Position numbers and translations under genes: made by a program
NCBI GenBank assembly: GCA_027627225.1
Contig: CM051026.1
Span: forward strand, 631,501-695,500
DNA: 64,000 nt
Source: Congeria kusceri
Lineage: Eukaryota; Mollusca; Bivalvia; Myida; Dreissenidae
Direction: 5' to 3'
Shown: one piece after another, positions 897 through 63,153 of the stretch
Layout of the letters: every line of letters begins with the position of its first letter
Numbering within the stretch: the first letter of the stretch is position 1
Notes under the pieces: generated by a model
What the model was told of the DNA's origin: nothing
Databases searched by the model: none
What the model saw: only the letters and a program-made list of their open reading frames with translations

Positions 897-2617
897 CTCA
901 ACAAAAAAGAAAGTATCCACTCATATATTTTATTGTTTTTCGATACCTGTATGTCATATTTAAACATAAAATAAAGTCGATGTACCGTTAATCATCTTTC
1001 AATAAAATGCTATATTTTTTTAAAAATTATTTCCATATTTATGGTCAAACATAGTACACAAACGTAACCAGTTTAAAAATCAAAATCACAAAGAACATAG
1101 TCAAAGCAAAAAAAGAAAGTATTCACTTTTAAACATCTGTATCTTAAAAAACATGAATTTTATTAGATTTCTTATTTATGACTATCGATTTAAAGAGCAT
1201 ATTCTTCCACATTCAATATAATGTGCATTTTTACTGTTAAACCATACATTTAGTACCAAATAGCCCACCAAAACTCGATTACCAATTGTGTAGTGAATTT
1301 TGTGTATGTTGTGATTGAAATTGATACTGTGTGGATAGTCGGTTCATAAAATCATCCAAATCATGTGAAATTACCATATCATGTTTAAATATGGACTAGT
1401 GAAACCAGGCTCTTGGTATCCTGCGAGCAAGACTGATTTTAACTGACATAAGTCGATGGTTTAATGGCACAAGGGCGACAATTAACTGTCTACGCACACG
1501 TTCCTGTTTTGTGATTTTTAGACTGTTGGCGCAAGCCAACAGGATTTAGTAGGTGTATTCTGAAATCGGTCTTGAGGGAACTACTTCTTTACTTTGCAGG
1601 CTACGAGTCAGTGAATCGATAAAGTACTGAGCTTAGCTCGTTGAGCAGTGAGGCTTCCTGTTATCGATGCTACTTTCTATGAATTTATGACAAGAAATAG
1701 ATCTGACTTTAAACACTAATACACAATAATAGTTATCCATTCAGTCCACATCTACAAGTGAATTCATGTTATGTCTATTCACATAGGTATGATGGCGTAT
1801 CTGTTTGTGCCGTTAACTGGCGAACTGTGTATTGCAGTTTAACAGTGTATTGAGTCAGTACATATAGCGGAGCGATCGTAACGACTCGATTGACGATTGC
1901 TATTTTTTTGACGTATGCATAAGAATTATTGAAAAGCATTGTTCTTCTAAAGATAGTTTTGAATGTATTTTACAAACTCAACTTATTTTTATTTAAATTG
2001 GTGATAAATAGCACTGAATATTGATTCGCACTTATAAGGTTCGTCGAATTGTTTTACCGTTGTAGATTGACGTGTATGCATATAACTCTGTTTGCTTTTT
2101 AAAATAGTTTGCACAAAAATATTTGCCTCCCACGAATTACAAAAAATAATGATGAGAATATCGTAGAATTAGACGAGCGCTATATTAGTTATAATTTTCA
2201 AAAAAAGTGGCCTGGATCTCCATTTTCAATTAGGTTAAATGCCAGCTTATACCAATTTATTTTATGCGGAGTGTATAGTTATGAGTTTTGAGATTTTTTT
2301 GTAGAAATGATATACCAGACAGGTGACTTACTTCAATAAATGTTCCGTATAATAAAAATACTCTCATAATTCATTTGCTCTTAGTTTCTTTTGTCGCCAA
2401 CAGTCTTTCTACGCTGTCAGCGTTTTGATTATTTTTGCACCTGTTAAGTTTTTGCTTTGTGTTTAACCATAAATATGGAATTGATTCAGAAACAAATAAT
2501 AACATTTTATTGAAATATGATTAAAGTTTCATTGACTTTATTGTTTGTTTAAATATTACATACAGGTATCGAAAAACATGAAAATATATTAGTGGATACT
2601 TTCTTTTTGTTGTTGAG
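897..2617. mobile_element. TA-flanked TIR transposon, Tc1/mariner-like, non-autonomous, copy 1
   Basis: Inverted ends start CTCAACAAAAAAGAAAGTAT and are flanked by TA on both sides (895-896 and 2618-2619), as expected for Tc1/mariner insertion. The inverted similarity runs inward about 180 bp, with small gaps, to the CCATATTTATGG motif at about 1030 and 2470. A second AAAAAAGAAAGTATTCACTTTT motif near 1110 repeats the terminal motif, recalling the direct-repeat transposase sites of IR/DR-type Tc1 elements. The 1.7-kb interior has no transposase-like frame. Superfamily assignment is inferred from ends and flanks only. Confidence 0.7.
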
Positions 2618-2875
2618 TATATATGCTTGTACTTGTATGTAACTAATTTATACGATAAAATATGGTCCTATATTCCTAAAATCTCTATACATCTGGCATT
2701 GCATTTTTTCTCCTAAGACTCAGGAATATACAGTTTTACCATACAGAAAAATACAAAACTAAAGAACACTACGGAACCGGAATTATGTCCCTTTAACTTT
2801 GCCACACACTGCCGTCCTAAGAAATAGTGCAACAGTAGCAGAAATCCAATTATTATTTTTCAGTTTATTCAATTT

Positions 2876-4250
2876 GGTGGTCTCTTAATGCTTTGTGACT
2901 TGCAAAGGCAGCTGGTCGTTGGTTGTACATGTATGTATGTGATGTACCTAAGTAATCATCCTATAGCATACACACATACACATTTTGTATGTTCATGAAG
3001 AATAAAGGAAAAATACATGAGTTTTAGAAAGATTTATTGTATTAACTTCTTAATTTTATGTTATATTACAATGTACATGTTTTATTTTACACAAGTGCAT
3101 TAAATAACATAATGGCATACATTCATCTGCATGTACCTGTACATGCATTTACATGATAGATTTGAATACATGTATATACATAACATATAAACATACATGT
3201 ATTTACATACATTGATTTTAATATAATATAATATGATATTTACACACATACACAAGCATACACGCACTTATATTCAATCACTAACAGGGTCTCAATCTTT
3301 GTCTGCTTCACCTTCTCTCCATTTATTGCAATCTCCCCTAACGCATAACTAGTGTCCCATCAATGAGTGTAAAAGCTTATGGTGTCCCTTTTTCACCGCC
3401 CATTGTTTCATTTTTCTGTTCATGTCGCAGACCTCGCTTATGGTGAGTGATGGTTCTGGTGGATTCGTCTTCGGCGTTTCTACTGCTGGGTTGGATTCTT
3501 TGTTTGATTCACTTCCACTTGCTGCCTCCTCATAGTACATGTAATATAAGAGGATCAAATTGAAATGCATTTCTACAATAAATATAACGTATACACTTTC
3601 GTTTTATTATGTTTTATTTTTCAGTAAACAACTACAATTGACTTATCATTTTGGCTTTAAAATTATTACATTCTTACATATAAAATTATCATCTTGAAAA
3701 TGCGGACAGAGAAAATTAATATAAATTGACTTTTAACACATGAATTTAAGTTATAATTACTTTTGAACACAACCGTTCAGATCGTTTTCATGTGCAACTA
3801 ATCATACAGTCTGTTTGATATTTTGCAACTAGTCGTACAGTCGAGTCACGTTGGGTGTGGTTGGACAAAATGTTTGATTTCTCCGCGCAAAACCTATTTG
3901 ATTTGTAAGTAATTTATTTATCACTTTTTACTCAAAAATTCGCCAAAACCATCGTCACAATTAAATATATGGCTACAAACTTATTATTTTTATTTCAAAA
4001 ATCGAAACACTAAGTGATCATGTCTGCTAAAACAAGTACTCTTAAAATACTAGGCATAATCGCCAGAATATATTTACGTAATGTCATTATATGTTTTCGG
4101 AGAACTTAATTGTATTTATATTCTGCTTCGAAGAAAATAAAAAATTAAAAAAGTGTTTCACTTACTGCGTTTTCTGATGTTTGCAAGATACTGATCATCG
4201 GCGTACAGATCACCAACTTCCGGGTTAGCTTACTGTACGATTATACACTG
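2876..4250. other. Unique-looking AT-rich interval between the duplicated segments
   Basis: AT-rich with ACATGTA-type simple sequence at 2990-3230. On the minus strand 3352-3570 has an open frame ending in EVCDMNRKMKQWAVKKGHHK-like sequence with GC content above its surroundings, and AATAAA lies just downstream near 3325. It could be a terminal exon, but I recognise no family and cannot fix an acceptor site. Nothing else supportable was seen. Confidence 0.3.
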
Positions 4251-17562: not shown

Positions 17563-18816
17563 GTCGCAGTTCAAGGCGGAAAAAGTCCCGCTCTATCGCC
17601 GTTCCCCTCTAGCACAAATGCGTATGCCAGATTCAACCTCAGATACACCTTTGACGGATTGCATGTTGAACTGTTATGAGATTAAAGCAAGACGATGATT
17701 TTGTAAATGTTCATTGATAAGTCTTAAGTGAATATGTTGTTGAAAAAACGTCGTTGTCTCTCATGGTTGTGTTGCGTTGTTGTCTCTCATTGTTGTGCTG
17801 CGTCGTTTATCTCATGGTTGTATTGCGTCGTTCTCTCTCATAGTTGTGTTGCGTCGCTGTGTCACATACTTGTGTTGCGTCGTTGTCTCTTATAGTTGTA
17901 TTGCGTTGTTGTCTCTCATAGTTGTGTTGCGTCGTTGTCTCTCATGGGTGTGTTGCATCATGGTGTCTCATGGTTGTTTTGCGTCGTTGTCTCTCATAGT
18001 TGTATTGCGTCGTTGTCTCTCATAGTTTTGTTGCGTCGTTGTGTCTCATTGTTGTGTTGCGTCGTTGTGTCTTATGGTTGTGTTGCGTCGTTGTGTCTCA
18101 TGGTTGTATTACGTCGTTGTCTCTCATGGGTGTGTTGCGTCGCTGTGTCTCATGGTTGTATTGCGTCGTTATGTTTCATAGGTGTATATGTCGCAGTTCA
18201 AGGCGGAAAAAGTCCCGCTCTATCGCCGTTCCCCTCTAGCACAAATGCGTATGCCAGATTCAACCTCAGATACACCCTTGACGGATTGCATGTTGAACTG
18301 TTATGAGATTAAAGCAAGACGATGATTTTGTAAATGTTCATTGATAAGTCTTAAGTGAATATGTTGTTGAAAAAACGTCGTTGTCTCTCATGGTTGTGTT
18401 GCGTTGTTGTCTCTCATTGTTGTGCTGCGTCGTTTATCTCATGGTTGTATTGCGTCGTTCTCTCTCATAGTTGTGTTGCGTCGCTGTGTCACATACTTGT
18501 GTTGCGTCGTTGTCTCTTATAGTTGTATTGCGTTGTTGTCTCTCATAGTTGTGTTGCGTCGTTGTCTCTCATGGGTGTGTTGCATCATGGTGTCTCATGG
18601 TTGTTTTGCGTCGTTGTCTCTCATAGTTGTATTGCGTCGTTGTCTCTCATAGTTTTGTTGCGTCGTTGTGTCTCATTGTTGTGTTGCGTCGTTGTGTCTT
18701 ATGGTTGTGTTGCGTCGTTGTGTCTCATGGTTGTATTACGTCGTTGTCTCTCATGGGTGTGTTGCGTCGCTGTGTCTCATGGTTGTATTGCGTCGTTATG
18801 TCTCATAGGTGTATTG
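17563..18816 (+). repeat. Tandem duplication of a 627-bp block
   Basis: Bases 17563-18189 and 18190-18816 are direct, nearly identical copies offset by exactly 627. Each has a unique leader (GTCGCAGTTCAAGGCGGAAA onward, about 190 bp) and the same run of 13-mer minisatellite variants. The variant order inside the array is preserved, so the copy is recent, or an assembly artefact. Confidence 0.9.
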
Positions 18817-19058
18817 CGTTGTTGTCTCTCATAATTGTATTGCGTCTTTGCCTCTCATAGTTGTGTTGCGTCGCTGTGTCTCATGATTGTGTTGCGTCGT
18901 TGTCTCTCATGGGTGTGTTGCTTCATTGTATCTGATGGTTGCATCGTTGTCTCTCATAGTTGTGTTGTGTTGTTGTCTCATGTGGTTGTGTTGCGTCGTT
19001 GTCTCTCATAGTTGTGTTGCGTCGTTGTCTCTCATGATTGTGTTGCGTCGTTGTCTCT
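17746..19058 (+). repeat. 13-mer minisatellite family, locus 2 (26-bp dimer)
   Basis: Array of dimers made of GTTGTCTCTCATG and GTTGTGTTGCGTC blocks, each 13 bases, interrupted at 18180-18370 by the second unique leader of the 627-bp duplication. The array ends in a short CCGTA-type simple repeat at 19055-19090. Plus-strand frames rich in Val, Cys, Leu and Arg are repeat translations. Confidence 0.9.
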
Positions 19059-19090
19059 CAGTGCAGTGCCGTACCGTACCATACCGTGCC

Positions 19091-25082: not shown

Positions 25083-27420
25083 GCATTGTTGTTTCAAATT
25101 GTTGTGACGCGTAGTTGTTTCAGATTGTTGTAACGCCTAGTTGTTTCAGATTGTTGTGTCGCGTACTTGTTTCAGATTGTTGTGACGCGTACTTGTTTCA
25201 GATTGTTGTGACGCGTAATCGTTTCAGATTGTTGTGACGCGTAATCGTTTCAGATTGTTGTGACGCGTAATCGTTTCAGATTGTTGTGACGCGTAGTTGT
25301 TTCAGATTGTTGTGACGCGTAGTTGTTTCAGATTGTTGTGACGAGTAGTTGTTTCAGATTGTTGTAACGCGTAGTTGTTTCAGATTGTTGTGACGAGTAG
25401 TTGTTTCAGATTGTTGTGAGGCATAGTTGTTTCAGATTGTTGTAACGCGTAGTTGTTTCAGATTGTTGTAACGCGTAGTTGTTTCAGATTGTTGTGACGC
25501 GTAGTTGTTTCAGATTGTTGTAACGCGTAGTTGTTTCAGATTGTTGTGACGAGTAGTTGTTTCAGATTGTTGTAACGCGTAGTTGTTTCAGATTGTTGTG
25601 ACGTGTAGTTGCTTCAGATTGTTGTAACGCGTAGTTGTTTCAGATTGTTGTGACGAGTAGTTGTTTCAGATTGTTGTGACGAGTAGTTGTTTCAGATTGT
25701 TGTGACGAGTAGTTGTTTCAGATTGTTGTGACGAGTAGTTGTTTCAGATTGTTGTGACGAGTAGTTGTTTCAGATTGTTGTGAGGCATAGTTGTTTCAGA
25801 TTGTTGTGACGTGTAGTTGTTTCAGATTGTTGTAACGCGTAGTTGTTTCAGATTGTTGTGACGAGTAGTTGTTTCAGATTGTTGTAACGCGTAGTTGTTT
25901 CAGATTGTTGTGACGTGTAGTTGTTTCAGATTGTTGTAACGCGTAGTTGTTTCAGATTGTTGTGACGAGTAGTTGTTTCAGATTGTTGTAACGCGTAGTT
26001 GTTTCAGATTGTTGTGACGTGTAGTTGTTTCAGATTGTTGTGACGAGTAGTTGTTTCAGATTGTTGTAACGCGTAGTTGTTTCAGATTGTTGTGACGTGT
26101 AGTTGTTTCAGATTGTTGTAACGCGTAGTTGTTTCAGATTGTTGTGACGAGTAGTTGTTTCAGATTGTTATGACGTGTAGTTGTTTCAGATTGTTGTAAC
26201 GCGTAGTTGTTTCAGATTGTTGTGACGTGTAGTTGTTTCAGATTGTTGTAACGCGTAGTTGTTTCAGATTGTTGTGACGAGTAGTTGTTTCAGATTGTTG
26301 TAACGCGTAGTTGTTTCAGATTGTTGTGACGTGTAGTTGTTTCAGATTGTTGTGACGAGTAGTTGTTTCAGATTGTTGTGACGAGTAGTTGTTTCAGATT
26401 GTTGTGAGGCATAGTTGTTTCAGATTGTTGTGACGTGTAGTTGTTTCAGATTGTTGTAACGCGTAGTTGTTTCACAGTGTTGTGACGCGTATTTGTTTCA
26501 GATTGTTGTGAAGCGTAGTTGTTTCAGATTGTTGTGACGCGTAGTTGTTTCAGATTGTTGTGACGCTTAGTTGTTTCACAGGGTTGTGACGCGTAATTGT
26601 TTCAGATTGTTGTGACGCGTAGTTGTTTCAGATTGTTGTAACGCGTAGTTGTTTCAGATTGTTGTGACGCGTAGTTGTTTTAGATTGTTGTAACGCGTAG
26701 TTGTTTCAGATTGTTGTAACGCGTAGTTGTTTCACAGTGTTGTGACGCGTATTTGTTTCAGATTGTTGTGAAGCGTAGTTGTTTCAGATTGTTGTGACGC
26801 GTAGTTGTTTCAGATTGTTGTGACGCTTAGTTGTTTCACAGGGTTGTGACGCGTAATTGTTTCAGATTGTTGTGACGCGTAGTTGTTTCAGATTGTTGTG
26901 ACGCGTAGCTGTTTCACAGTGTTGTAACGCATAGTTGTTACAGATTATTGTGATGCGTAGTTGTTTCATATTGTTGTGACACGTAGTTGTTTCAGATTAT
27001 TGTGACGCGTAGTTGTTTCATATTGTTGTACGCGTAGTTGTTTCACAGTGTTGTAACGCATAGTTGTTTCAGATTGTTGTGTCGCGTAGTTGTTACAGAT
27101 TGTTGTGTCGCGCAATTGTTTCATGTTGTTGTAACGCATAGTTGTTTCACAGGGTTGTGACACGTAGTTGTTTCAGATTGTTGTGACCCGTAGTTGGTTT
27201 ACAGGGTTGTGATGTGTAGTTGTTTCACAGTGTTGTAACGCATAGTTGTTTCGTATTGTTGTGACATACAGTTGTTTTGCATGGTTGTGGAGTGTGATTG
27301 TTTAGCATTGTTTTGACGCGTGATTGTTTCTCATTGTTGATACGTGTGATTGTTTCGCATTGTTTTGGCGTGTGATTGTTTCATATAGTTTTGACGCGTT
27401 GTTGTGACTCGGGGTTGTTC
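25083..27420 (+). repeat. 13-mer minisatellite family, locus 3 (2.3-kb, 26-bp dimer)
   Basis: About 90 copies of a dimer of GTTGTTTCAGATT and GTTGTGACGCGTA. Variants (TAACGCGTA, GTGACGAGTA, GTGACGTGTA, GTGAGGCATA) recur in ordered runs. A block of ten dimers (260 bp) containing the CACAGTGTTGTGACGCG variant occurs at 26473 and again at 26733. The array decays toward the right end (27180-27420). It is the longest minisatellite in the window. Confidence 0.95.
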
Positions 27421-30232: not shown

Positions 30233-30925
30233 TCGTTGTATTACGTTATAGCACGTACTACATAGTTGTGTCGCGTGATTGTGTAACGTAGTTGTGTCGC
30301 GTGATTGTGTTACGTCGTCGTGTCACGTGAAGGTGTTACGTAGTTGTGACGCGTGATTGTGTAACGTAGTTGTGTCGCGTGATTGTGTTACGTCGTCGTG
30401 TCACGTGAAGGTGTTACGTAGTTGTGACGCGTGATTGTGTAACGTAGTTGTTTCGCGTGATTGTGTTACGTCGTCGTGTCACGTGAAGGTGTTACGTAGT
30501 TGTGACGCGTGATTGTGTAACGTAGTTGTGTCGCGTGATTGTGTTACGTCGTCGTGTCACGTGAAGGTGTTACGTAGTTGTGACGCGTGATTGTGTAACG
30601 TAGTTGTTTCGCGTGATTGTGTTACGTCGTCGTGTCACGTGAAGGTGTTACGTAGTTGTGACGCGTGATTGTGTAACGTAGTTGTTTCGCGTGATTGTGT
30701 TACGTCGTCGTGTCACGTGAAGGTGTTACGTAGTTGTGACGCGTGATTGTGTAACGTAGTTGTTTCGCGTGATTGTGTAACGTAGTTGTGACGCGTGATT
30801 GTGTAACGTAGTTGTGTCGCGTGATTGTGTTACGTCGTCGTGTCACGTGAAGGTGTTACGTAGTTGTATCACGTGATGATGTAACGTAGTTGTGTAACGT
30901 GATTGTGTTGTGTAGTTGTATCATA
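30233..30925 (+). repeat. 13-mer minisatellite family, locus 4 (78-bp higher-order unit)
   Basis: Every block is 13 bases: GTTGTGTCGCGTG, ATTGTGTTACGTC, GTCGTGTCACGTG, AAGGTGTTACGTA, GTTGTGACGCGTG and ATTGTGTAACGTA. Six different blocks form a 78-bp higher-order unit; the CGTCGTGTCACG marker lies at 30316, 30394 and 30472. About eight units are present, with an irregular section near 30770. Confidence 0.95.
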
Positions 30926-34384: not shown

Positions 34385-35015
34385 TAATAAATGTGGTTGT
34401 GTTGGTGGTGCTTTTGGTGTGGTACGTCGTTGTGTAAACTTGAATTGCCTGATTGTGTTACGTTGTTGTGTCGCCTGGTTGTGTCACGTTGTTGTGTCGC
34501 CTAGTCACGTTGTTGTGTCGCCTGGTTGTGTTACGTTGTTGTGTCGCCTGGTTGTGTCGCCTAGTTACGTTGTTGTTTCGCCTCGTTGTGTTACGTTGTT
34601 GTGTCGCCTAGTTGTGTAACGTTGTTGTGTCCTCTGCTTGTGTAACGTTGTTGTGTCGCCTGCTTGTGTTACGTTGTTGTGTCGCCTGGCTGTGTTACGT
34701 TGTTGTTGTGCCTGTTTGTGTTACGACGTTGTTACGCCTGGTTGTGTTACGTCTTTGCGACGCCTGGTTGTGTTATGTTGTTTCACTTGATTGTATTCCG
34801 TTAGTGTGTCACTTGGTTATGTACCGTTGTTGTGTTGCCTGGTCGTGTTACGTTGTTGTTTCGCCTGGATGTGTTAGCTCGTTGTGTCACCTGTTAGTGT
34901 TCTGTCGTTGTGTCGCTTTAATGTGCTACCTCGTTATGCCGCCGGTTGTGTAACCTCGTTGTGTAGCCTAGTTGTATAAGCGGCACTTGATTGTTTAACA
35001 CGTTTACGATGCCTG
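34385..35015 (+). repeat. 13-mer minisatellite family, locus 5 (26-bp dimer)
   Basis: Dimers of GTTGTGTCGCCTG and GTTGTGTTACGTT, well ordered from 34440 to 34780 and increasingly degenerate to the right. A few units lost part of a block (for example near 34503 and 34563). Confidence 0.9.
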
Positions 35016-41639: not shown

Positions 41640-43311
41640 TGGGTTATATAAAAGCTCGCTCTTCTTTCATTTTGATCGTTGTCCATTGGATTACTAAATT
41701 AACTGTATCAGCTAGACACTTTATTATAATAGGCCATTTCAAAATGCGAATCTAATCATGTTTCATCAAACTTGTATATTAGCAGATAGAATAAGGTGTA
41801 AAAAATAAAAATGTTTCAATTTTTGTGACCAAACCTTTAAAATTCAATGACCTTAGAACATGTTATTTAGTTTGTCACACAAATAATAGTAATAATATTT
41901 TCCCCACAATCTACCCTATTGTTCGGGGTGTCACGTAACCTGAAACAAGCATTTTTTTTTTGCCTCACCAAACAAACATGATATGGAAAAATGAATCCAA
42001 AGATTTGTTTTCTCCAGTACTCAGACCATAAAGCATAGGGATATACTATGTACGCTCTCCGAATGTGATTAAAGTTTACAGAAGAAAAGTGAAAATTGTA
42101 TACGTTTGTTAGTACAATTTCTGTTTTAATTGATTTCATTGTTAGACCATACCAATTTGATTCTTTGTTTAGCGTCCTCGGGCTTGTAGGTTTTCGAATG
42201 CCTGAATGAAAACAAAAACAATTGTGGCAAATTGGAAAAAAAGAACAAACAAGACTTCAGCGTTTTACCAATAATTGTGAAAACACACGGAACTAGTCAA
42301 TTTACACAGTTAAAATGCTGTGTTAAAGTAGGTCCTCAATATCAAGATGATATATTACAGTTTTGAAAGTTAACATTTGCTTAAGCTCGTACCAATGTCG
42401 TGAATAAATGGTTTCCTGCCTGGTCGGTAGGTTTCGAAAAATGTAGATGCTAGACATAGAATAAAATGTGTATGGCCTAATTATTTGTTTCGTTAATGTG
42501 TGGCTGACTTTACAAAAGTGGTTTATGCTGTTAATTTGTGTTCGCACAATTTGTTTTAGATTGCTTCCAGTATTAGTTATTTTTTCCACTGGTATATTTA
42601 ATGAAATATGTTTTGATTTAAAATATCCATTTTTGCCTGGTAAGCTTATACAATAAAATAATTATTGTTTTATGTATATTATATAATAATTAAAAAGATA
42701 AACTAAGAAACGTTGTGTTTATTGTTGTTTTATATTTTATTATAATATTTATCATGTCAACCATAATAGAATTAAAACAAAACATGTTGAAGACGACGGC
42801 GTATGTTTAATATGTTTTATGAATCTCTGAACCGAATGTTTTTTAGACCGATTTGTCTTGGGACTGAACTGTCTTAGGATCACGTGATATTTTAACTTCT
42901 GGTACAACGGCGGAAATGGCAAAACACAAATTACAGTTACATTTTATGAAAGGATTTAGCAATTAATTAGGACGTGACAAAGGTAGAATTTGATTGTTTT
43001 CATTTTCATATACTATAATGAAACAAATAACACCAATAAACAGAACTGACATGAAGTTTTAATAATGGAAACTCGAAACAAAGAAATCGTCAATATACAA
43101 TACATGTATACAATGCAGATAACAATAAAAGAACACGCAGTAACTGGAACAAAAATTACAAGTGCAAGAACTGGCACTAGACCTGGAACATAGAAAACCA
43201 TACTTCCTGTGAACCTGCACTGAATTATTTGTGGTAGCATAACTTGTTAGGCTCTTGGCAAATCTTAATTTTAGTTACTTTTTATGTGGGCAATAATTGA
43301 CAGTATAATTT
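41640..43311. other. AT-rich interval left of the PHD-OTU transposon
   Basis: Frames at 41867-42139, 42323-42656 and 43013-43240 show no domain. No repeats recognised beyond AT runs. Confidence 0.4.
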
Positions 43312-43319
43312 TATAAAAG

Positions 43320-43537
43320 GGTTACTAGATTTACCGAAAGCGCGCGCTTTCGGTAAAAGTACCGAAAGCGCAGTGGAATAACCGAAAGCGCACTGGATAA
43401 AAGCGTTACCTATACAATATTAGTAGCATGAGCTATATACTGTTAATAAATATGTTTAAAGCCACGTATTTAAATGTTTTATTATATTTTTTAGATAAAG
43501 TTGCTATGTTGTTGAAGTTTATTAAAATGCATACTCG
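43320..43537 (+). repeat. Left terminal inverted repeat of the PHD-OTU transposon
   Basis: Begins GGTTACTAGATTTACCG. Bases 43331-43356 form a perfect 26-bp palindrome (half-site TTACCGAAAGCGC). Two further ACCGAAAGCGC copies follow at about 43361 and 43381, giving four sites per end, plausible transposase-binding sites. The remainder is AT-rich. Confidence 0.85.
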
Positions 43538-43970
43538 TTATTTTGATTTATAAATCTTGTTCCATCCTGTCACTGTATTCATTGTTTCATGCAGTTGAAA
43601 GCGTGTATTAAAGCAAAACGACTGGAATATTTTTAGTTTTCTTTATTATCATTTCGACCTCAAGATTGCAACATGTAACATGTAACAATACAGTACCAAT
43701 GACAAGGACACAAAAAAGCATGTTGTATGGTTAAAAACTATTCCGTATGTAGCAAAATAATCTTGACATACAAGAATTCGAAATTTCTCCACATAACAGT
43801 ACTGCAGTAATTGTTAACACAAAAATTACATAAATGTTTATGAAACTAACATAAACTTTGTTAAGTCTTTCTGTCAATGTCAACTCCCACCCTTATCGTT
43901 ACTGTCTTCTCATCTCATAACATTTACGCGTCTCTGTCATTCGTTCTTATGTTAAGTCTGTCCGTCAATG

Positions 43971-45240
43971 TCAACTGGAACCACCAAATCTGTCACACTT
44001 TCGGTGGCTATCCTTTTCCGTTTCCAAGTCATTAGCACTGAATGATATGTCCATCGGATCGCAATCAGCAAGTCTTGATATATCAAAACAATGCGCTAGA
44101 GACACAAGCGGGATGAAATGGTTACACTTGAAGTCAGTAGGACATTCGGGCGCGCGCATTGATGTCCACATCACGGTCGCTTTTGGATGTAAGCTTTGAT
44201 CCACGTTCCTTCCTCGTACGGTACGAGTGAATGCCGCTGACATCTCCCTGATCTGTTGGGGCGGGAAATACGACTGAATAGGCTGCTTCAAAGCGGCACT
44301 GATTGCATACAAGTGAGCCATTTCCGAGTAGGCGTATATAGTCACTGCTTTTTTTTACCAAATCTGCATACGGACTGGTAGAAATTGCAATTTCATTTAG
44401 GAAGTCATTTCTAGGAAGCCCCGTGTCGTAAGAAGACCTGTTTAATATCATTTCTATCGCCGTCTTCAGTCTAAGAAGTACGTGATAGTCCTCCACTCCG
44501 GTTAATGCTTTTGACACAGTTCGGTACAGACAGTTTCCATCACCAATTGTTGTCAAAGGGCAGAAGTTTGCATTCAATTCAGGCTGGCACATGCGTAATA
44601 TCTTAACTGCCTCTGTGTCGACGTCCGATGTGCTGAACATCAGATTTTCATTCACTGGAAGTTCCACTTTGTACGTTAACAACAGTTTGGACTCGGATTT
44701 CGCTTGATGTAAGCTTTTGTGGCCGCCCAAAGCATGTTCTACGCACAGCCTGAAAAAAAAGAAAATACTGCAATACTTACTGGGCAAAAAGAAAGAAAGA
44801 GCACAAAAAAGGACTGACTGACTGACTGACTGGTTCAAGTAATATCAATAAACTGTCTGATCTGTTCTTACGTCATTGACGTTGTTATACATTTGCATAA
44901 CTTATTTGTACAAGTGAGTAGAAAGTTTTTTTTTATCAATAGATCATGAACTTACGGGTCTCCTAAAGAAAACTAAATGAAATCGGCTCTAGCCAGAATG
45001 GATCAACATCGGAAACTGAAACAAGTGTACATACCTCTTGAGCGCAGCTTCGCCGTCGTACGTTCCATTATGAAATCCACACTTCTGACACACAAACTTA
45101 AGGTACGATGGAGACCATGATTTTAGGTCTTTAGCCGACATGTAACAGCACTGACGATGCGACCAGTTTTTACAGTAATGGCACTGGATAGATCCATCTG
45201 CACACTCTTGTGAACACACAGAACAAGGATATTCCACCAT
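43971..45240 (-). CDS. PHD finger + OTU-like cysteine protease protein, two exons, one frame break
   Basis: Exon 1 (45240-45035) starts ATG in the context CACC-less but clean, ends AAGAG|GTATGT; the intron ends TTTTTTTTCAG; exon 2 starts at 44749 in matching phase. The predicted protein is about 327 aa. Residues 6-54 hold all eight PHD ligands in C-x2-C, C-x2-C, H-x2-C, C-x2-C order. IGDGNCLYRTV at about 137-147 is the OTU nucleophile motif (Cys142), and CNHFIPL near 277-283 supplies the catalytic His. The region between resembles vertnin-like proteins. An eight-A run at about 44349-44356 shifts frame between the Cys and His halves; seven would keep it open, so this is a sequencing slip, an allele or a disabling mutation. 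Role inferred: ubiquitin-like deconjugation linked to chromatin reading. Passenger gene in a transposon. Confidence 0.7.
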
Positions 45241-45742
45241 GTTTAGAAACACACTTATCCGTTGTAATAAAAACAAAAACCTTTTGAAACTTATATACAT
45301 ATGTCTGCCTTTGAGTTGCCTTTGAGTTGTAATGCCGCTTCAAACTGTAAAAATATTGTCGGCATTTTCTGTTTTATTTCAGATTTCACTGTTGCAAACA
45401 TGGTCTGTTATTACTGGAAACAATATTATAATTGTGTAATTATGGTATGATTGTAATTGTTTGGTTTTCTTTTATTAAGTTCTTCGTAATCTGTTCTTTA
45501 AATAGAGGTCTCCATCATTAAAGACGGCGCTAATTAATTGTGGTGGGTGGAGAATAATTTCTTTAGAGCGTTACAAACTTTATGTGTCAATTTTAATTGT
45601 ATTTGTGAAAGTGTGTTATCCCTTAGGTTTTTGAAGGTGTGAATTTTTCTCATACAATGCATATGGATGGTTGATTTTTTTTATATCATTGTGCAAAAGA
45701 GTGAAAACAAATAAAACAACAAATTAAAACGTTCAACTATAT

Positions 45743-45961
45743 CGAGTTTGCATTTTAATAAACTTCAACAACATAGCAACTTTATCTAAAAAATATCATA
45801 AAACATTAAATACGTGGCTTTAAACATATTTATTAACAGTATATAGCTCATGCTACTAATATTGTATAGGTAACGCTTTTATCCAGTGCGCTTTCGGTTA
45901 TTCCACTGCGCTTTCGGTATTTTTACCGAAAGCGTGCGCTTTCGGTTAATCTAGTAACCGG
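45743..45961 (-). repeat. Right terminal inverted repeat of the PHD-OTU transposon
   Basis: Reverse complement of the left end with few differences; its outer palindrome has one altered core base (AAAGCGTGCGCTTT). It lies about 500 bp upstream of exon 1 and may contain the promoter of the passenger gene. Confidence 0.85.
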
Positions 45962-45969
45962 TATAAAAG

Positions 45970-47744
45970 AGTTGCGGGACTTACCGTTTAAGAAAAATAT
46001 TTTGCAACTTCAACATGCTGAAATAACATAGTTAGAAATGAAATGTTGGTTTCTTACTTGTAAAGATAATTTAGCCTTTACACCTGAAAGGTCGTGGATG
46101 TTATGCATTCGAGTCCGTGCGTGCGCATAATATGCGACTGACGGAATGTAATCAACACATTTAAATTTAAATGGCTTCTTTACTTACTATTTTATGTACC
46201 AAAACAGTGAACACGTAATGAGAAATATGTTACTTCATTCAAAACTAAATGTGACCTAAGACATACTTGTCATATGTCCCGGATCGTCTGGGATTGTCCC
46301 GGAAATGCAGTGCACATCCTGCAGTCCCAGACTTAGTTAGTATGTCCCGGAAATCATAACAACTGTGCATACCTATATTAGATTAACTTTTGACAGACCA
46401 CTAATCCCCTAATTTGTCCCCAAGGCAATCACCCAATTAGGCAAAGTGTCATAAACAAGCAATTAACAGAAGTTGTCACACTTTCACTCTAATCAACTGC
46501 CATCAGTAGGTCCGACTTTAAGGCGGATCTTCATTTCCACAGAAAAATCGATATTAGCCAATTAAAACGCGGAGTTATTTCAGCTTGCCAATGCTGTGAA
46601 CCAGCGACCTATCTGTGTAATACATATTTATACACGTATTAGTAAGTGTATACATGCATCAGGAATACATTAATTCCAAAGTATTATAGATCCCGTCCAA
46701 ATATGTACAAGTTTATCGAACTAATAAACAGTTCAAACAAAATATTGTTAAGAAAACTAGCTATTTTTTGTATAAAATGCTTTAAAATACGAGAAAATGT
46801 CATATATATGTAGTATAAAATATTTATATTTTTTCACAAAGAAAACATGTACAAATAATGTAATATTGTTGAAATTGTTAAAATACGTGTGACATTATGT
46901 AGTCACTATGTATTAACCTCATCCATGTGACATTCTCACGAAAACATGTTTATTTCGTGTCTATTTAAATTGATTTATCTTCGAAATGATGTATGTTTTG
47001 TATTTACTTCAAACGCATGTTGTTATTGTATATGTGTGTTAATGACGATGAGCTTTATATGCTTAAGTCGAAAATAAACTATTCTGATTCTATTCTGATA
47101 ACGAAAGAGTACTTGTAATCCCGACCGGAAATAAAACCAGTTTACTCAATGATTTCCGTTGTCCACAATATCCGCAGTTAGTTTACTACCATAATAAGGC
47201 ATTGTTTTAAACTACTTTCCTCGAAATTTCAGATGAAATAGTCCTAAAACAAATGTTTTGTTATGCATGTAAAACTTATGTACACGTCCGGGAAAGGCAG
47301 TAAAAATGCCAGAAATTCGCAGGCAGAGTCCCGGAAATAATCCTAAAAATTATGGCATGTATGCCTAACAACGCCTTTAACTCGCTCAAATTCCTTCAAG
47401 TTTGTGGGTAATTTTAGGTGACGTCATATGGCACGACCACATCATTGATTTTGTGTTTACATATCAGTGATGAACTTGTTATTTATCATTTAAACTTAAA
47501 ATGTATGCATGTATTTGCTGTTATAAGTCGGTAAATTCTTCGAGCCAGAATTTGCAAAGAATTAGGACACATGATGTTGCGTGTTTGTATCGAAAATGAT
47601 GTCTGTGCATCATCCACCGGAATAGATGCTAAATAATGTCATGTGCTGACTTGATAAACGTCACATAGTGTAGAAAAGCTTTCATTGAAGTGCTTGAATG
47701 TGTAGGCGTGCGTTCTAATACCACATTTAACTGTGCACCCCAAT
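45970..47744. other. AT-rich interval
   Basis: TGTCCCGGA words recur at 46275-46350 and GTCCCGGAAATAAT appears near 47325; a weak inverted relation may mark another old element, but I cannot delimit it. No coding signal. Confidence 0.35.
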
Positions 47745-48168
47745 TTTTTAGCTTGGCTATTCATAAAAAAAGTCGCCCGTTCGTCAGCGTCTGCTTCGGC
47801 TTAATGCTCTGGATAAGGTTTGCGTGCATCAAGTACATATCTCTGTAACTGCTACAGATATTCATTTGAAACTTCACACATGTCTTTGGGGTCATTATGT
47901 GAGGCCACTGACGAAAGCTCATAACTCTGACTTGCAATTTAGCAGAAATATGCCCCTTTTTGCACATGGAAATTCAGGTTAAAGTTTGCGTTTTAAATTT
48001 TGCTTGCATCAACTTCATATCACTATTATCTACTACAGATATTCAATTAAAACTTCACACATGTCTTTGGGGTCATGTAAGGTATGTACCGTCACTGACC
48101 AAGGCCCATAACTCTGACAAAGCGGTATGAGTAGTCAAGCGCGATACCCTGAGACAGCTTTTGTTTTG
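47745..48168 (+). repeat. Dispersed repeat related to AGCTCGACT family, copy 4
   Basis: Begins TTTTTTAGCTTGGCTATTC and ends CAGCTTTTGTTTT, with two internal units containing ACTTCACACATGTCTTTGGG. A minus-oriented relative lies at 61960-62245. Confidence 0.7.
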
Positions 48169-48514
48169 TTTTGAATTATTTTTGTCGGAGCAATTCCATA
48201 AATTAAGTATTGCTACTCGAAAAAACATATTTGAGAAAATAATGAAATTATCATGTTTCAATATTTGTCTATATGCGAAATGCCTTTGATAAGCCCATTG
48301 GCAATATGTAACTGAGAGCCCTCTTTCTGTCTTGCAGCCCGCAGATCACTGAATTTTGGCATCATTTGTTAATAACGCAGGAAATTATAAATAATATATT
48401 AATATTTTCAACAATCTCTTTCTTTTAATAAACCATTCCAGATGTATCAGTTGCTATAGTTATAGCATTGTAAAGAAAATACAGTAAATCTAATTGAAAG
48501 TTGATTATGTTAGT

Positions 48515-49790
48515 TTTTAGCTCGACTTTTCGAAGAGAAGGCAAGCTATTCTGCTTGCCCCAGCGTCGGCGTCTGCCTAGGTTAACATTTTTCAGTAAGC
48601 TAGTTTCTCAGGAAACATTTATTTACTTAAAATATGTATTCCCCATATTAAAATGAATCCATAGGCTAGGTTTAGTAACTCTAGTTTGAAATTTTTCCTC
48701 ATTATGGGCCTTTTACACTCAAAAAATTACATTGCATGCTATTTGGGTAGGTTACAGATTTTCGGTAAACTATTATCGCAGGAACTGCTTGAGAGTGATT
48801 TTATTCAAACTTTAAGCATTTATTCCCCTTATTTAAATGAACCCATAGGCCAAGTTTGGTAAATGTTGTTTGAAATGTGTAAAATTTATGGGCCTTTTCA
48901 CACTTAGAAACTGATAGTGTGGGCTATTTTGGTAGGTTAAAGTTTTCCAGTAAGCTAGTACCTCAGTAATGACTGAAGGGATTTTAATCAAACTTTACAC
49001 ATTAATTCCACATATTAAAATCAACTCACAGGCTAAGTTAGGTAACTCTAGTTTTAAGTTTGTAAAATTATGGGCCTTTTCATAGACCCGTAACGCGTTT
49101 AAAAAATGGGTCATATTATGGGAATGCCCAAGCATGTTGCAGGCGGACGGACGGACGGCGTGAGATCTTTGTCCGGACCATAACTTTGTCCAGCATGGAT
49201 TGATTTTCAAATAACTTGGCACAAGTGATAAGCATGATAACACAGAGTGTCGCACGTAAGAACCAGGTCCCTAGGTCCAAGGCCAAGGTCACAATTCAAG
49301 GTCAAAGGTTAAATAAAAGAAATAAATCCTTACACTTTGTCCAGAGCATATCTTTGTCCAGCATGGATGGATTTCCTAATAACTTGGCAGAAGTTGTAAG
49401 CATGGTGAGACAGAGTGTTGCGCGCATGAACCAGGTCCCTATGTCCAAGGTCACAATTCAAGGTCAAAGGTCAAATATAAGAAATCAATCCTTACCACTT
49501 TATCTGGAGCATATCTTTGTCCAGCATAAATGGATTTTCAAATAACTTGGCAGAAGTGGTAAGCATGGTGAGACAGAGTGTCGCACCCAAGAACCAGGTC
49601 CCTGTGTCCAAGGTCAAGGTCACAATTCAAGGTCAAAGGTCAAATATAAGAAATTAATCCTTACTGCTTTGTCCGGAGCATATCTTTGTCCAGCATGGAT
49701 GTGTTTTCAAATAACTTGTCAGAAGTGATAATCATGGTGAGGAGAAGCATACAAACAATTTTGCTTTTAGTCTTCCCTCACAAAAATAAT
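48515..49790 (+). repeat. Composite dispersed repeat with two tandem sections
   Basis: 48515-49100 begins TTTTTAGCTCGACTTTTCGA and holds about three units with TTATGGGCCTTTTCACACTT. 49150-49740 holds about four units, 163-169 bp each, marked by CAGCATGGAT at 49191, 49359, 49522 (variant) and 49691, each with GTCACAATTCAAGGTCAAAG. Non-coding. Confidence 0.7.
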
Positions 49791-51005
49791 CTGTGAACAA
49801 TAATAACTCTTATACCCTAAAACACTAATACAAACTATATCATTCCGTTAGTCCTAAATAATTAGATATTTAGTTGATTCTGATCTCATTTTTGTATGGG
49901 GCGACACCATGTCTAAACAGCTTAAGACTTACTATAAATAATTTCAAATTGTTTTACCTTTTTGTGTCTGCAAACTGCATAATTATGCTTAATGAATGAT
50001 GTACATGTTAGTTTTATTTAAAGTTGTTGGTTTGCAATTTGTAAAATGATCAATCTTCTAAATACATGTAACTCACTTACCCGAAGCCCGGGAGACTATT
50101 CTGGCTAGTTAAAATTTGACCTATCTTCCTGAAGGGCAAGTTTACAAAGGATGTAAAATTAGGAAACTGACCTGATCAGTTACTGTCTAGATTTACACAT
50201 TTATGGTCTGATCGGCACGTCTCTAAAAAAAACAACTATTGCAAAGACTGATTATACATGAATTTATAATAGTACATGAATATTGCATTGTAAAAGATAA
50301 ATTCACAGCTTATAAAACTTCCAACATGATTTCATGTCAAAACAATGCTGTTATTAAAAATGAATGTAAAATGAAGAAAAAAACAAACTCATATTGATAG
50401 GAGTACCATTTCTTGTGTCAATAATATAAGGTTATTTAACAGCGTTCTGTACAATGCATTGCTACAATTAGACGAGTACACAGCATGCAAACCATATTGG
50501 AAGAGTCGATAGGCAATACTATATATTGAGTGCATGTAATATATTAGATTTAATAAATACACTGTTCATATTCATCCTTTTAAAGAAATCTGGACTGCAA
50601 GCTTGAAGATATTCAATCACATCTATCTACAAGCGTTAACAGAGAAAACCCAAAAGAAGAAATAATACATTCTTCATTTTCATCCTTGTAATGAAATGGA
50701 CTACAAGCTTGAAGATCTTCAACTGCATGTACAGGGTATCTACAAATTTTAACAGAGGTAAACAAAGTGCTGAAACAACTAGAAAACACTTGGAAAGCAA
50801 AGAACTCCACCAAGATGGCCCATTCACCCATATGGTATGCAATATATGATTTATACAGCTTAATGTTGCAATTTGCTTAACAATAAGGAATCCTTTACGA
50901 AGTCCTGGATCCAGATTGTGATCCGGATTACCACCACAGTCAAATCATAGTTTGTTGACACATTTACAATCTTCGCAAGAAAGTTCATGCAAAACTGTAC
51001 GTAAC
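49791..51005. other. AT-rich interval with a 109-bp diverged direct repeat
   Basis: Two copies of a roughly 109-bp unit start at about 50573 and 50682 (TTCATCCTT...GGACTACAAGCTTGAAGAT...TATCTACAA). Minus frames across them show no domain. Confidence 0.45.
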
Positions 51006-51009
51006 TTTT

Positions 51010-52462
51010 TATGCTCCCAAAAGGGGACAGCGTATAGTTGCTGCCTTGTCTGTCTGTCTGAATTCTACATCATCGTTATTGGTTTGTCTCAATGTCATAT
51101 GCATTTCCCCACAATTTTTATCCGCCCGTCTGTTCATCTGACCTTCCATCTGCCCCATAGTTAGTTTCTGCCGAAGATCTCTGGAACTAATATCTCAGAT
51201 GCAATAAAACTTAATATGAGGAAATGCACATATTCTTAGGTTATTCCAGTCTAATTTTTTTTCATGGACTAATTGCCCTTTGACTATTAAGGGGACATTA
51301 AATTGGATATTTGTGTTTCTGCATGAGATCTCTGGTATTAATAACTCAAATTCAATTAAACATGAAATGCAACATCCTTACATAGAGGTCTCCACATATT
51401 GTCAGTTCTTTCAAGTCTGATGATTTTTCAGGGAATTATTGCCCCTTGATGATAAATAGGATTTGTTAATAGGACATTTTTAACGCACTAGTTGTCAGGA
51501 ACTAATGACTAATTTTCAATAAACTTCAGCATTTCTATTAAGAGGACATGCTCAAACTGTCAGGTAATTCCAGTCTGATTTGATTATAAACAAAATATTT
51601 TAATGGGATATTTTTGTTTTCCCACAAGTTCTCAGGAACTAATTACTCAAATTCATTTCAACTTTATATGCAGCATCCCTGCCAAGAGCACTTGCACATA
51701 TTGTCAGATCGTTCTGGTCTGTTGATATTTCGTCCGTCGTCCGTAATTCATCAATTATGGGCATGCGAAGGCAATACAGACTTCTCTTTCTATTCGAGCT
51801 TAACCAAACTTGCACTGTTTGTGTATTACGATAACATCTCGGATAGGTTCGATAATGGGCCAGATCGGACCAGGAATACCAGATTTAGTGCCCAAATAGT
51901 TTTCATCCGATCTTCGTCAAGCTTCATAAAAATCTTTATTCTAATAATACATTAGCCAGGTTTTATCACCAGCCAAATCACACTTGGAATTGTGGAGTTA
52001 TGACTCTTGAATTATCTAAAATTGTCCGTTTTAGCCATTTCCGTTCCGTACAACACTTTTTATCAGATCTTCACCAAACTTCAAAATCTTTGGTGGCCTT
52101 ATATCTTGTTCAGGTACAATATTCAACCAAATTGTCTCAGTTACTGTAGAGTTATGGCCTGTGAATTATCTTAAATTAGCCTTTGTACCTGTTTCTCTCT
52201 TAGTCAAATAGTCTTCATCCCATCTTTAACCAACTTGATAAAAATGTTTAAGGTATATAATATAATATTTTAAGTTCAACAATCTACCAAACTGCCCCAG
52301 GAACTGCAAAGATATGGCCCTTGATTTATCTTAAATTTGCCTTTTTAGCACCTTTTGCTCCCTATATCCAACAGTTTTCATCCAATCTTTACCATAATTG
52401 ATATTTAAAGGATCGCTTTTAACCTAGAGGGGGCATAATTGTTTTACAAATAGCTCTTGTTT
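51010..52462 (+). repeat. Long dispersed repeat starting TATGCTCCCAAAAGGGGACA
   Basis: Starts with the AAAAGGGGACAGCGTAT block, runs through diverged units with TCAGGAACTAATTACTCAAA and TTATGGCCCTTGAATTATCT, and ends CCTAGAGGGGGCATAATTG...AGCTCTTGTTTC. The tail matches that at 39790-39847. Confidence 0.6.
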
Positions 52463-52526: not shown

Positions 52527-52756
52527 CCCGACAAGCTCAGTTGGTAGAGTGCTGGACTGTTAATCCGGGGATCGTTAGTTCGAACCCCTAGCCTGGCCAC
52601 ATAACTTGTGTCGGGATTGGTCATATTCTTCTTTTTATGGCCATTCTCCCCCTACCTCAGATTCAAGTAGGGCAATCGTCAGTAACTGGTATAAGTTATA
52701 ATGTGCACTTTGTACTGGTAAACTGCATAGAAAAATCCATACAAACAAACTTACAA
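52527..52756 (+). mobile_element. tRNA-headed SINE with 15-bp target duplication
   Basis: GTATATGGTTGTGTG occurs immediately before (52512-52526) and after (52757-52771) the element, the signature of target-primed reverse transcription. The head reads as a tRNA: AAGCTCAGTTGGTAGAGTG (box A), a CTGTTAATCC anticodon region and AGTTCGAACCCC (box B). The acceptor and T stems pair poorly, so it is not a tRNA gene. The body contains CCCCCTACCTCAGATTCAAG and GTAACTGGTATAAGTTATA and the tail is A-rich. It may belong to a widespread molluscan V-SINE-type family (RUDI-like); that name is from memory. Confidence 0.8.
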
Positions 52757-60859: not shown

Positions 60860-63153
60860 TCAACGGAGCTCTTTGGCCTTCTCAAAGACGTTGCAGTAAT
60901 CCTTGACCCACTGTGACCAGCTTGCCTCGACTGGAAGATGCTGCACGTTATAAGGCCTGTAAAATAGAAACACCGATTGAACACTAACCGCGCTTTGTCT
61001 TTGTGATCCAGAGTAACACTCAACATTTTGCATGGAAAGATTTGTATATAAGGTAAATAGGAGAAAACTTGTGATCAGGTCAGCTAACAAAGTAAATCAG
61101 TGGAAATCATGTGTGTCACTTTATATAACAGAATGAATTTGACTGTTTGGGACACTTTTCAATCAATAACTGTATGACGGGGTACAGTGTGGATATAATT
61201 TACAGTGGTGCGATTGCAAAAACATTTTAGAACAGGAAAATACCCTCCACAACCCTATAGGTTTCACCACAACTCATTTCAAAACAGACCCAGCAACGTT
61301 ATTACTATTAGAATAATTTGTAAATAAAGTATTGCATTCAAAAGGAGGAATGGTGTAGTGAATATGGATTCGGCCTTGTGACCAGGAGTCCTGGGTTTGA
61401 TCCCCACTCTGGGAGCATTCTTAAAATCTTTCCAAAGACACCAAGTACTGGTACATCCCAGAAACCAACTCGAGAGTGTCTTTATAAGCCAAGGCTTTCG
61501 ATGCAATCGAGCTTAAATAAATAGGTTTAAACAAACTAAAGGAGGAAGAATCACACACCTGGTTTTATGTCTACACTGCCCTCCATTATTTACATGATTG
61601 CACTGAGACAAACGACTCCTACCCTTGGTTTTATATCTACACTGCACTCCATTCTTTACATGACAGCACTGGGACAAACGACTCATACCCTTGGTTTTAT
61701 ATCTACACTGCACTCCATTATTTACATGATTGCACTGAGACAAATAACTCATACCCCTGGCTTTATGTCTACACTGCACTCCATTATTTACATGACAGCA
61801 CTGGGCAAACGACTTACACCCTTGGTGTTATGTCTACATTGCCCTCCATAACTGGACCAAGACAAACTGGTGACTGTTGATCCTTGTCCTTTGCACTTAA
61901 AATATTCTAGCAGTATCATCATCAGTATGATATATATGTATTTAGTTACAGCTTACAAGACAAGAGCTGTCTCAGGACAGTGCACTTGACTATTCGAACC
62001 GCTTTGTCAGAGTTATGGGTCCTTGTCAGTACAAAACAGGGGCATAATTCTGCTAAATTGCAGGTCAGAGTTATGGGCCTTGGTCAGTGACCTCACATAA
62101 TGACCCCAAAGACATATGTGAAGTTTCCATTGAATATCTGTAGTAGTTACAGAGATATATACTTGTTGCACGCAAACCTTAACCAGAGCATTGGACGACA
62201 CGGACGAAAGGGTAAGTAGAATAGCTCGAACTATTTGGTGAATAGTTGAGATAACAAAACATACATCTCGGTATTGTATCGTTGTTAATTTACTGCAATA
62301 TGTACCATTGTATCGCAAGGCTAGCATATCATTACACCTGTAGAGACAAATCATTGTTTTTATATGATTCACTTTGGCCAAATAATAATAACGGGCAAAA
62401 AACATTCAAACATTGCATACCTCTGGTGTGGATTGAGTGTGTTGAGGCAGGGAATGTCTGAGTTGGTCAGAGGACGATTGTCACCAGATGCTTTAAAATC
62501 AACCAGAGAAAAGGAAGAACATTACCTTTAATCAGACAGTAAAATAAACAGTATTATGGCAATTTTATTTTATTTCATTATTTTTTTAACATCTCCTCAT
62601 TTTGGAAACATACAGTTATACATGCAGTTGGTGTTTCATCATTTCCCTCTAAACTATTACATTCATAAATAAATAATACTATTATGTACGGTAACTACAG
62701 TTATAAGAAATGTAATACCATTGAAAAACTTTAGTTATTGAAAAATGTAGCAACAAATACGTTGCAAACCGGTTCATTTTGCATTTGCAAGTAAAGCAAT
62801 TATATAAAAAGCATGATTGATTTTAACTTCATCACATAAAACATGTATTTGCCTTCAATATTCCAAAGATGAAACAAACCTATCGTTTTAAACCTATCAT
62901 TAATATGCTGACATCCATTGTGAATTGTATATAACCAGCACACTATATATAACTATTAGTCTAGTTTTCTGACCACATTTGATTGGAGTATTAAGTAGAT
63001 CAGCATCTGGCTTTAAGCTATTCTTTCAACAATCCTACTTACCATCAATTTTAGAAATGTCACCTGCTCATTTGCTGTCGCTGTATGTTCAGTCAGAACG
63101 CCTCTACAATCATCTCGCAACAACATCTTGTAGGGAGGCCGCTGTATTTGTAA
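60860..63153 (-). CDS. 3' end of a multi-exon host gene, product unknown
   Basis: Three minus-strand exons with good splice sites. 63153-63043 (open LQIQRPPYKMLLRDDCRGVL onward, donor TTGATG|GTAAGT); 62490-62421 (acceptor TTTTAAAG, encodes SGDNRPLTNSDIPCLN..., donor CAGAG|GTATGC); 60956-60860 (acceptor TTTTACAG, encodes PYNVQHLPVEASWSQWVKDY..., stop TGA). The last two join exactly in phase as HQR|PYNV. The first to second junction is off by one base unless an extra exon lies between or the weaker donor GTAA|GTAGG is used. Upstream exons are beyond the right edge. I do not recognise the family. Introns contain a SINE and minisatellites. Confidence 0.65.
61351..61537 (+). mobile_element. tRNA-headed SINE with 10-bp target duplication, intronic
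   Basis: AAAGGAGGAA lies at 61341-61350 and 61538-61547. The head has TGGTGTAGTGAATATGGATT and GTCCTGGGTTTGATCCCC (box B); the 3' end GCAATCGAGCTTAAATAAAT resembles the 17232 SINE tail. Antisense to the host gene, inside its last intron. Confidence 0.75.
61559..61851 (+). repeat. 66-bp tandem repeat, about 4.4 copies
   Basis: Unit marked by CCTTGGTTTTATATCTACAC at 61623, 61689 and 61755, with TTTACATGACAGCACTGGGA or TGATTGCACTGAGACAAA in alternating units. Because 66 is divisible by three, open frames run through both strands (61513-61779, 61567-61851) without meaning a gene. Confidence 0.9.
61960..62245 (-). repeat. Dispersed repeat related to the 47745-48168 copy (inverted)
   Basis: Starts ACAAGAGCTGTCTCAGGACA and contains GTCAGAGTTATGGGCCTTGG and CCCCAAAGACATATGTGAAG, the reverse complement of the 47.8-48.1 kb repeat. 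Intronic. Confidence 0.7.

What the first reader, a model, noticed from the sequence alone, without database searches (positions are those of the whole stretch)
43320..45961. Young transposon whose only cargo is a PHD-finger/OTU-protease gene
Seen: about 218-bp near-identical inverted repeats, a candidate TATAAAAG target duplication, and a two-exon minus-strand gene whose splice phases agree. Known: a C4HC3 PHD set and an OTU DGNC...NHF pair are recognisable family signatures. Inferred: a non-autonomous element carrying a chromatin-reader/deubiquitinase-like passenger gene. Such a cargo could counter host silencing or be a module of a larger undescribed transposon.
Basis: partly seen in the sequence, partly recalled or inferred. 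Interest (0 to 1): 0.9.

Follow-up and report, generated by a model that had tools for sequence, protein, structure and literature searches.

The report
Mutator transposon reduced to its head
This is an internally deleted copy of a Mutator-type jumping gene: longer copies with the same ends elsewhere in this genome carry a PHD-like finger, an OTU-protease-like domain and a transposase in a row, so the supposed passenger gene is most likely the leftover front end of that transposase, and the piece was likely moved by a transposase made elsewhere.

Summary
The element is real: 222/221-bp inverted repeats (7 differences) around a two-exon minus-strand gene with PHD-like and OTU domains. But it is not a transposon with passenger cargo. 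In the same genome 13 longer copies (4.4-5.0 kb) share these ends and carry PHD exon, OTU and a Mutator (MULE) transposase in order; the window copy lacks a 2.17-kb block that includes the transposase. A Lingula protein holds PHD-OTU-MULE in one chain, and two diverged loci in this genome keep that order. Of 21 distinct insertions parsed, 16 show a perfect 9-bp target duplication, as in Mutator elements; the window copy has a shifted 8-bp one. Eight distinct short derivatives have different breakpoints; three keep PHD+OTU without transposase, so nothing marks PHD-OTU as selected cargo. The window gene is broken: OTU Cys and His lie in different frames. Four other 2.63-2.64-kb copies share its flanks: one insertion, duplicated or haplotigs. 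No intact long copy was seen. OTU-bearing Mutator elements are in print (MuDR-6_HM); ten searches found no PHD-OTU-MULE. New variant of a known kind; the window copy is an ordinary deletion derivative.

The parts
43312..43319 (.). left copy of the 8-bp word TATAAAAG (candidate target duplication)
   Evidence: chance estimate; same flank letters in L020-L022 and, reversed, L019
43320..43541 (+). left terminal inverted repeat (3' side of the gene), with repeated ACCGAAAGCG motifs
   Evidence: 40 near-full matches in the genome, two of them this copy's own ends
43320..44021 (-). 3' part of the family (end of transposase frame, 3' region, repeat), matches L010 4126-4827 at 99.0%
44020..44021 (.). 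deletion junction: 2.17 kb (linker and transposase) missing relative to L010, 2-base microhomology
   Evidence: the query breaks at the same point
44021..44749 (-). exon 2 remnant: OTU domain, corresponds to about residues 5-237 of the 936-aa relative P0010
44349..44356 (-). homopolymer run at which the OTU reading frame shifts; Cys lies before it, His after it
44750..45034 (-). intron, GT-AG, 285 bases
   Evidence: homolog aligned on both sides of the joint
45035..45240 (-). exon 1: PHD-like finger (C4HC3)
   Evidence: matched in 13 of 13 long copies, partly in L012 and L032
45734..45739 (.). second, small deletion (about 167 bases of L010 missing) just inside the right repeat
45739..45959 (-). 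right terminal inverted repeat (5' side of the gene)
45962..45969 (.). right copy of TATAAAAG, two bases outside the repeat

Best explanation
The element is an internally deleted copy of a Mutator-like (MULE) DNA transposon whose longer copies in the same genome carry, in one direction, a PHD-like exon, an OTU domain and a MULE transposase, so the 'cargo gene' is most likely the front part of the transposase gene, and the window copy was likely mobilised in trans by a full-length copy. Shown: same ends, same PHD exon, same OTU exon and one missing 2.17-kb block; 9-bp target duplications in the family; one Lingula protein with all three domains. Inferred: that the long copies make one protein; cut-and-paste in trans; deletion by faulty repair (2-base microhomology here, a 32-base filler in sibling L036); a role of PHD as chromatin reader and OTU as deubiquitinase during transposition.
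For: Own genome (1.549 Gb): 40 near-full matches of the 221-base end, two of them the window's own; 40 of 144 candidates were scored. 26 elements with both ends parsed (window plus 25 of 28 fetched loci; L024, L031, L034 showed one end only). 13 of 13 long copies have PHD, OTU and transposase homology in order. Window = L010 without 1953-4126 and a further 167 bases. 9/9 target duplication at a fixed offset in 16 of 21 distinct insertions. Relatives: of 73 hits to the transposase half (the query among them), 30 have the OTU Cys motif, 62 the first two Asp motifs of the transposase, 25 both; Pfam MULE in 46 and OTU in 29 of 54 members, which I chose from the 81 retrieved. Transposase D, D, E kept in every member with a letter there (49 of 49, 48 of 48, 48 of 48); OTU Cys in 31 of 32, motif Asp in 29 of 32, His in 38 of 42. 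P0053 (Lingula): PHD 12-60, OTU 138-227, MULE 630-731. L037 and L040: PHD, OTU, transposase on one strand. Fold of P0053: best PDB match ISCth4 transposase (E 2.7e-6, rmsd 14.2, TM 0.39 by target), then OTU deubiquitinases.
Against: No uninterrupted full-length copy was seen: 13 of 13 long copies have at least one frame shift or stop in exon 2, so an active source is inferred. The window copy's duplication is 8 bp and shifted; L013 and L016 are shifted too, L011 matches 7 of 9, L029 none. PHD in one chain with OTU and MULE is complete in one protein only (P0053); P0076 (E 1e-8) begins inside the PHD part, P0069 (E 0.004) and P0046 (E 0.19) only weakly so. PHD is below Pfam's cut-off in the window and in Lingula, and that part of the model has low confidence. 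L038 shows transposase only. No RNA evidence for splice or single transcript.
Confidence: 0.93

Rival explanations
1. Pack-MULE-like capture: the element picked up a host PHD-OTU gene as passenger.
For: The window copy alone has no transposase, and MULEs are known to capture host gene pieces (PMC6431247, passages).
Against: The same two exons stand in front of the transposase in 13 of 13 long copies, relatives of both do so at diverged loci L037 and L040 and in one Lingula protein.
Confidence: 0.03
2. A self-standing PHD-OTU element lineage: PHD-OTU is kept by selection without transposase and acts in trans, for example as a regulator of full-length copies.
For: Three of eight distinct short derivatives keep PHD+OTU without transposase (window, L017, L036); in L017 and L036 the OTU Cys and His share one open frame.
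Against: The three deletions have different breakpoints; 4 of 8 kept transposase sequence instead and 1 only PHD. The window copy's OTU frame is broken, and its four look-alikes share its flanks, so they did not spread by transposition.
Confidence: 0.04
3. A different OTU- or PHD-bearing transposon class (Ginger1, Helitron/Helentron, Rehavkus).
For: Ginger1 and some Helitrons carry OTU, one Ginger1 family Ulp1 with PHD (PMC2836005, passages); Rehavkus carries a PHD finger (PMC6446971, passages).
Against: Pfam finds MULE and Transposase_mut and no integrase or helicase; 9-bp duplications fit neither Ginger1 nor Helitrons (recalled), but do fit Rehavkus; no tandem array inside the window copy speaks against Rehavkus.
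Confidence: 0.03

Closest known systems
Mutator-like elements (MULEs), in particular MuDR-6_HM of Hydra, listed with an 'Ovarian Tumour Gene'
   Same: MULE transposase and an OTU domain; long inverted repeats and 9-bp duplications are common among MULEs (PMC6446971, Table 1 and passages)
   Different: Here a PHD-like exon precedes the OTU domain; that table lists no PHD, repeats or duplication length for MuDR-6_HM, and no extra motif for its mollusc groups. The MuDR-6_HM sequence was not compared.
Rehavkus
   Same: PHD finger, 9-bp duplication, repeats of 26-400 bp (PMC6446971, passages)
   Different: Rehavkus has a minisatellite before the 3' repeat and no OTU listed; no tandem array was found in the window copy
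Ginger1 transposons
   Same: OTU or Ulp1, once with PHD, attached to a transposase (PMC2836005, passages)
   Different: Ginger1 has a Gypsy-integrase-like transposase with C-terminal OTU; here the transposase is MULE and OTU is N-terminal
Vertnin (VRTN)
   Same: UniRef calls the Dreissena relative P0003 'Vertnin'; PMC10318531 (passages) classes vertnin as an inactive OTU homolog
   Different: Vertnin is described there as inactive; most members here keep Cys and His. No vertnin sequence was compared.

Membership tests
Mutator-like element (MULE) | DDE transposase of MULE type | tested here: met
   Met by 13 of 13 long copies and by relatives; absent from the window copy itself, where it is deleted
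Mutator-like element (MULE) | target duplication of 8-11 bp, usually 9 | tested here: met
   16 of 21 distinct insertions 9/9; L011 7/9; L013, L016 and window an 8-bp word at a shifted place; L029 none (ends of L026, L030, L036 set by hand)
Mutator-like element (MULE) | long terminal inverted repeats | tested here: met
   222/221 bp
OTU protease domain | OTU fold with DGNC Cys and NH(F) His | tested here: met
   Relatives: models match OTU deubiquitinases (mean pLDDT of P0003 only 64.7); invariant in 8 of 8 rows of A1, one row being the window read across its break; in A3 Cys 31 of 32, His 38 of 42. Window copy: both residues present but in two frames
PHD finger | C4HC3 ligands and Pfam match | tested here: inconclusive
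   Ligand spacing met; Pfam 20.1 bits against a cut-off of 24; 37% identical to the Lingula PHD part over 65 aa; PHD part of the model has low confidence
Pack-MULE with captured host gene | internal gene of host origin, unrelated to the transposase | tested here: not met
   The internal exons stand in front of the transposase in long copies and relatives
Rehavkus | minisatellite before the 3' repeat | tested here: not met
   No tandem array between 37522 and 46969 of the window; the long copies were not scanned
Ginger1 | Gypsy-type integrase transposase | tested here: not met
   Pfam finds MULE/Transposase_mut, no integrase
active deubiquitinase | cleaves ubiquitin | not testable with these tools
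   needs an enzyme assay

The most novel reading that the evidence does not exclude
An animal MULE lineage has built a chromatin reader and a deubiquitinase into the head of its transposase, to find or open ubiquitin-marked chromatin when it jumps; its deletion derivatives that still make PHD-OTU alone tune the full-length copies in trans.
Probability: 0.1. Interest if true: 0.75.

Novelty: new variant of a known kind. Interest (0 to 1): 0.42.

Why it matters
It turns a puzzling 'cargo' gene into a testable statement about a transposase: in this family PHD-like and OTU domains stand in front of a MULE transposase in all 13 long copies examined. Ubiquitin-related proteases recur on unrelated transposases (OTU and Ulp1 on Ginger1, Ulp1 on Mutator; PMC2836005, passages), and one relative found here carries Ulp1 on the same kind of transposase (P0054), which suggests that removing ubiquitin or SUMO is useful for transposition. 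It also suggests that annotated 'Vertnin'/OTU genes in bivalves such as P0003 are likely transposon genes.

Tried and rejected
Host-gene capture, Ginger, Helitron and Rehavkus were considered and rejected as above. Scans of viral contigs with the OTU frame, an end motif and the transposase alignment, and of prokaryote genome contigs, found no relative. Rfam at its gathering scores found only a tRNA elsewhere in the window. Vertnin as a domesticated relative could not be tested: no vertnin sequence was obtained.

Selection test, weak: among copies in this genome pairwise dN/dS was 0.41 for OTU, 0.68 linker, 0.58 transposase (copies sharing flanks, L015 and L019-L022, dropped). A second count gave 0.54 (bootstrap 0.30-1.02), 0.81 (0.38-2.25) and 0.73 (0.51-1.12) (L035 dropped too). 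OTU looks no less constrained than the transposase, but all three intervals reach 1 and overlap.

Papers: ten searches listed no paper that I could recognise as describing PHD, OTU and MULE in one transposase; the library lacks most subscription journals, and Repbase Reports were not seen. I saw passages only of PMC3024977, PMC6446971, PMC6431247, PMC2836005 and PMC10318531; of the other papers only search listings.

Full report
What is there. The window holds an element bounded by inverted repeats 43320-43541 and 45739-45959 (222 and 221 bases, 7 differing columns). The repeats carry several copies of ACCGAAAGCG in both orientations; this 10-mer was found nowhere else in the window. Inside, on the minus strand, lie a PHD-like exon (45240-45035), a 285-base GT-AG intron and an OTU exon (from 44749). 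Pfam scores are modest: PHD 20.1 bits (cut-off 24), OTU 23.3 (cut-off 23.3). The OTU frame breaks at the T run 44349-44356, so Cys and His are in two frames.

The gene looks like the head of a transposase. A first protein search gave seven OTU relatives, the nearest 78% identical over 77% of the query, in Dreissena polymorpha, called Vertnin by UniRef. Allowing longer candidates gave four proteins; three of them (936-982 residues) have a MULE transposase behind the OTU domain, the fourth (P0012, 512 residues) only OTU. A search with the transposase half gave 73 proteins, the query included: 30 have the OTU Cys motif, 62 the first two transposase Asp motifs, 25 both. In 54 members chosen from the 81 retrieved, Pfam finds MULE in 46, OTU in 29, Transposase_mut in 23, PHD in 1 and Ulp1 in 1. 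The PHD-bearing one, Lingula P0053, has PHD (below cut-off), OTU and MULE in one chain. The window's PHD exon is 37% identical to its PHD part over 65 residues, and exon 1 plus the start of exon 2 aligns on both sides of the splice joint (36%, E 6e-19, with an 8-residue gap); P0076 begins inside the PHD part (E 1e-8), P0069 (E 0.004) and P0046 (E 0.19) weakly so. A model of P0053 (mean pLDDT 82.7, PHD part low) matches ISCth4 transposase and OTU deubiquitinases in the PDB; a weaker model of P0003 (mean pLDDT 64.7) matches OTU deubiquitinases.

The same genome holds the longer element. The 221-base end has 40 near-full matches (97-100%, two of them the window's own; 40 of 144 candidates scored). 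From 28 fetched loci and the window, 26 elements had both ends; L024, L031 and L034 had one end. Thirteen are 4.4-5.0 kb, and 13 of 13 have PHD, OTU and transposase homology in order. Against L010 the window copy lacks 1953-4126 (2-base microhomology) and about 167 bases near the right repeat; the rest is 97-99% identical. The residues after the deletion come from the transposase tail read in another frame. The second exon of L010 has 990 codons with one stop; 13 of 13 long copies have at least one frame shift or stop there. In a protein search with 51 of 469 candidates scored, the only match open over the whole 897-residue query was the query's own locus, L025, which has one frame shift.

It behaves like a Mutator element. 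Removing copies that share flanks (L015 with L014; L019-L022 with the window) leaves 21 distinct insertions. Sixteen have a perfect 9-bp duplication one base outside the GGTTACTAG end (AGTTACTAG at one end of L010, GGCTGCTAG at one end of L030); L011 has 7 of 9, L013, L016 and the window an 8-bp word at a shifted place, L029 none. The window copy and the four other 2.63-2.64-kb copies lie in the same surroundings: stretches of about 9 kb including the element align at mostly 98-99.9% (L021 in pieces, one at 94.6%; extent limited by what was fetched). So they are one insertion, copied by duplication or present as haplotigs, not five jumps.

No sign of selected cargo. The eight distinct short derivatives have different breakpoints: window, L017 and L036 keep PHD+OTU; L014, L016, L018 and L030 keep transposase sequence; L035 only PHD. 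Some long copies have smaller internal deletions too. L036 has a 32-base filler copied from elsewhere in the element, as expected if gap repair was interrupted (inference). The homopolymer at which the window frame breaks differs in length among copies.

The architecture is older than this family. Of four further loci chosen, L037 and L040 are diverged and keep PHD, OTU and transposase in order on one strand (PHD 45% and 39%, OTU 37-40% and 48%, transposase 54% and 57-63% identical to P0001, P0010 or P0013); L039 belongs to the window's family; L038 showed transposase only. Named hosts of relatives include Lingula, Mytilus, Pinctada, Mya, Branchiostoma and Ciona.

Compared with what is known. 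A MULE with an OTU gene (MuDR-6_HM) and the PHD-bearing Rehavkus group are in PMC6446971 (passages); OTU, Ulp1 and PHD on Ginger1, and Ulp1 on Mutator, are in PMC2836005 (passages). Ten searches listed no description of PHD-OTU-MULE that I could recognise. So the family is a new variant of a known kind; the window copy is an ordinary, broken deletion derivative.

Noticed in passing
P0054: A relative of the same transposase carries Ulp1 (Peptidase_C48) where others carry OTU: ubiquitin- and SUMO-type proteases may be interchangeable on this transposase.
   Followed up: partly
P0039 (Mytilus coruscus): The same transposase predicted with an N-terminal NADAR domain; may be a gene-model fusion.
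   Followed up: no
P0003; paper PMC10318531 (passages): The transposon's OTU head is annotated 'Vertnin'; vertnin is classed as an inactive OTU homolog, so it could be a domesticated relative. Not tested.
   Followed up: no
L037 (C152:293500-303400), L040 (C4:64169500-64179400): Two diverged PHD-OTU-MULE loci in the same genome; their ends were not found.
   Followed up: partly
window about 41800-51300: About 9 kb around and including the element recurs, mostly at 98-99.9%, at C3:1.34 Mb, C3:12.66 Mb, C31 and C595: segmental duplication or haplotigs.
   Followed up: partly
window 47803-47961 and 62034-62192: Inverted repeat pair, 91% complementary, 14 kb apart, with further arms at 48094-48169 / 61955-62030.
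   Followed up: no
window 17749-19060, 25088-27405, 30259-30919, 34447-34975: Several tandem arrays with a 26-bp period, up to 89 copies.
   Followed up: no
window 52534-52592: tRNA match of 32.7 bits, gathering score 29.
   Followed up: no
P0006, P0016: Relatives deposited in MAGs of Thiodiazotropha and Sedimenticola, possibly host-animal DNA in symbiont bins.
   Followed up: no
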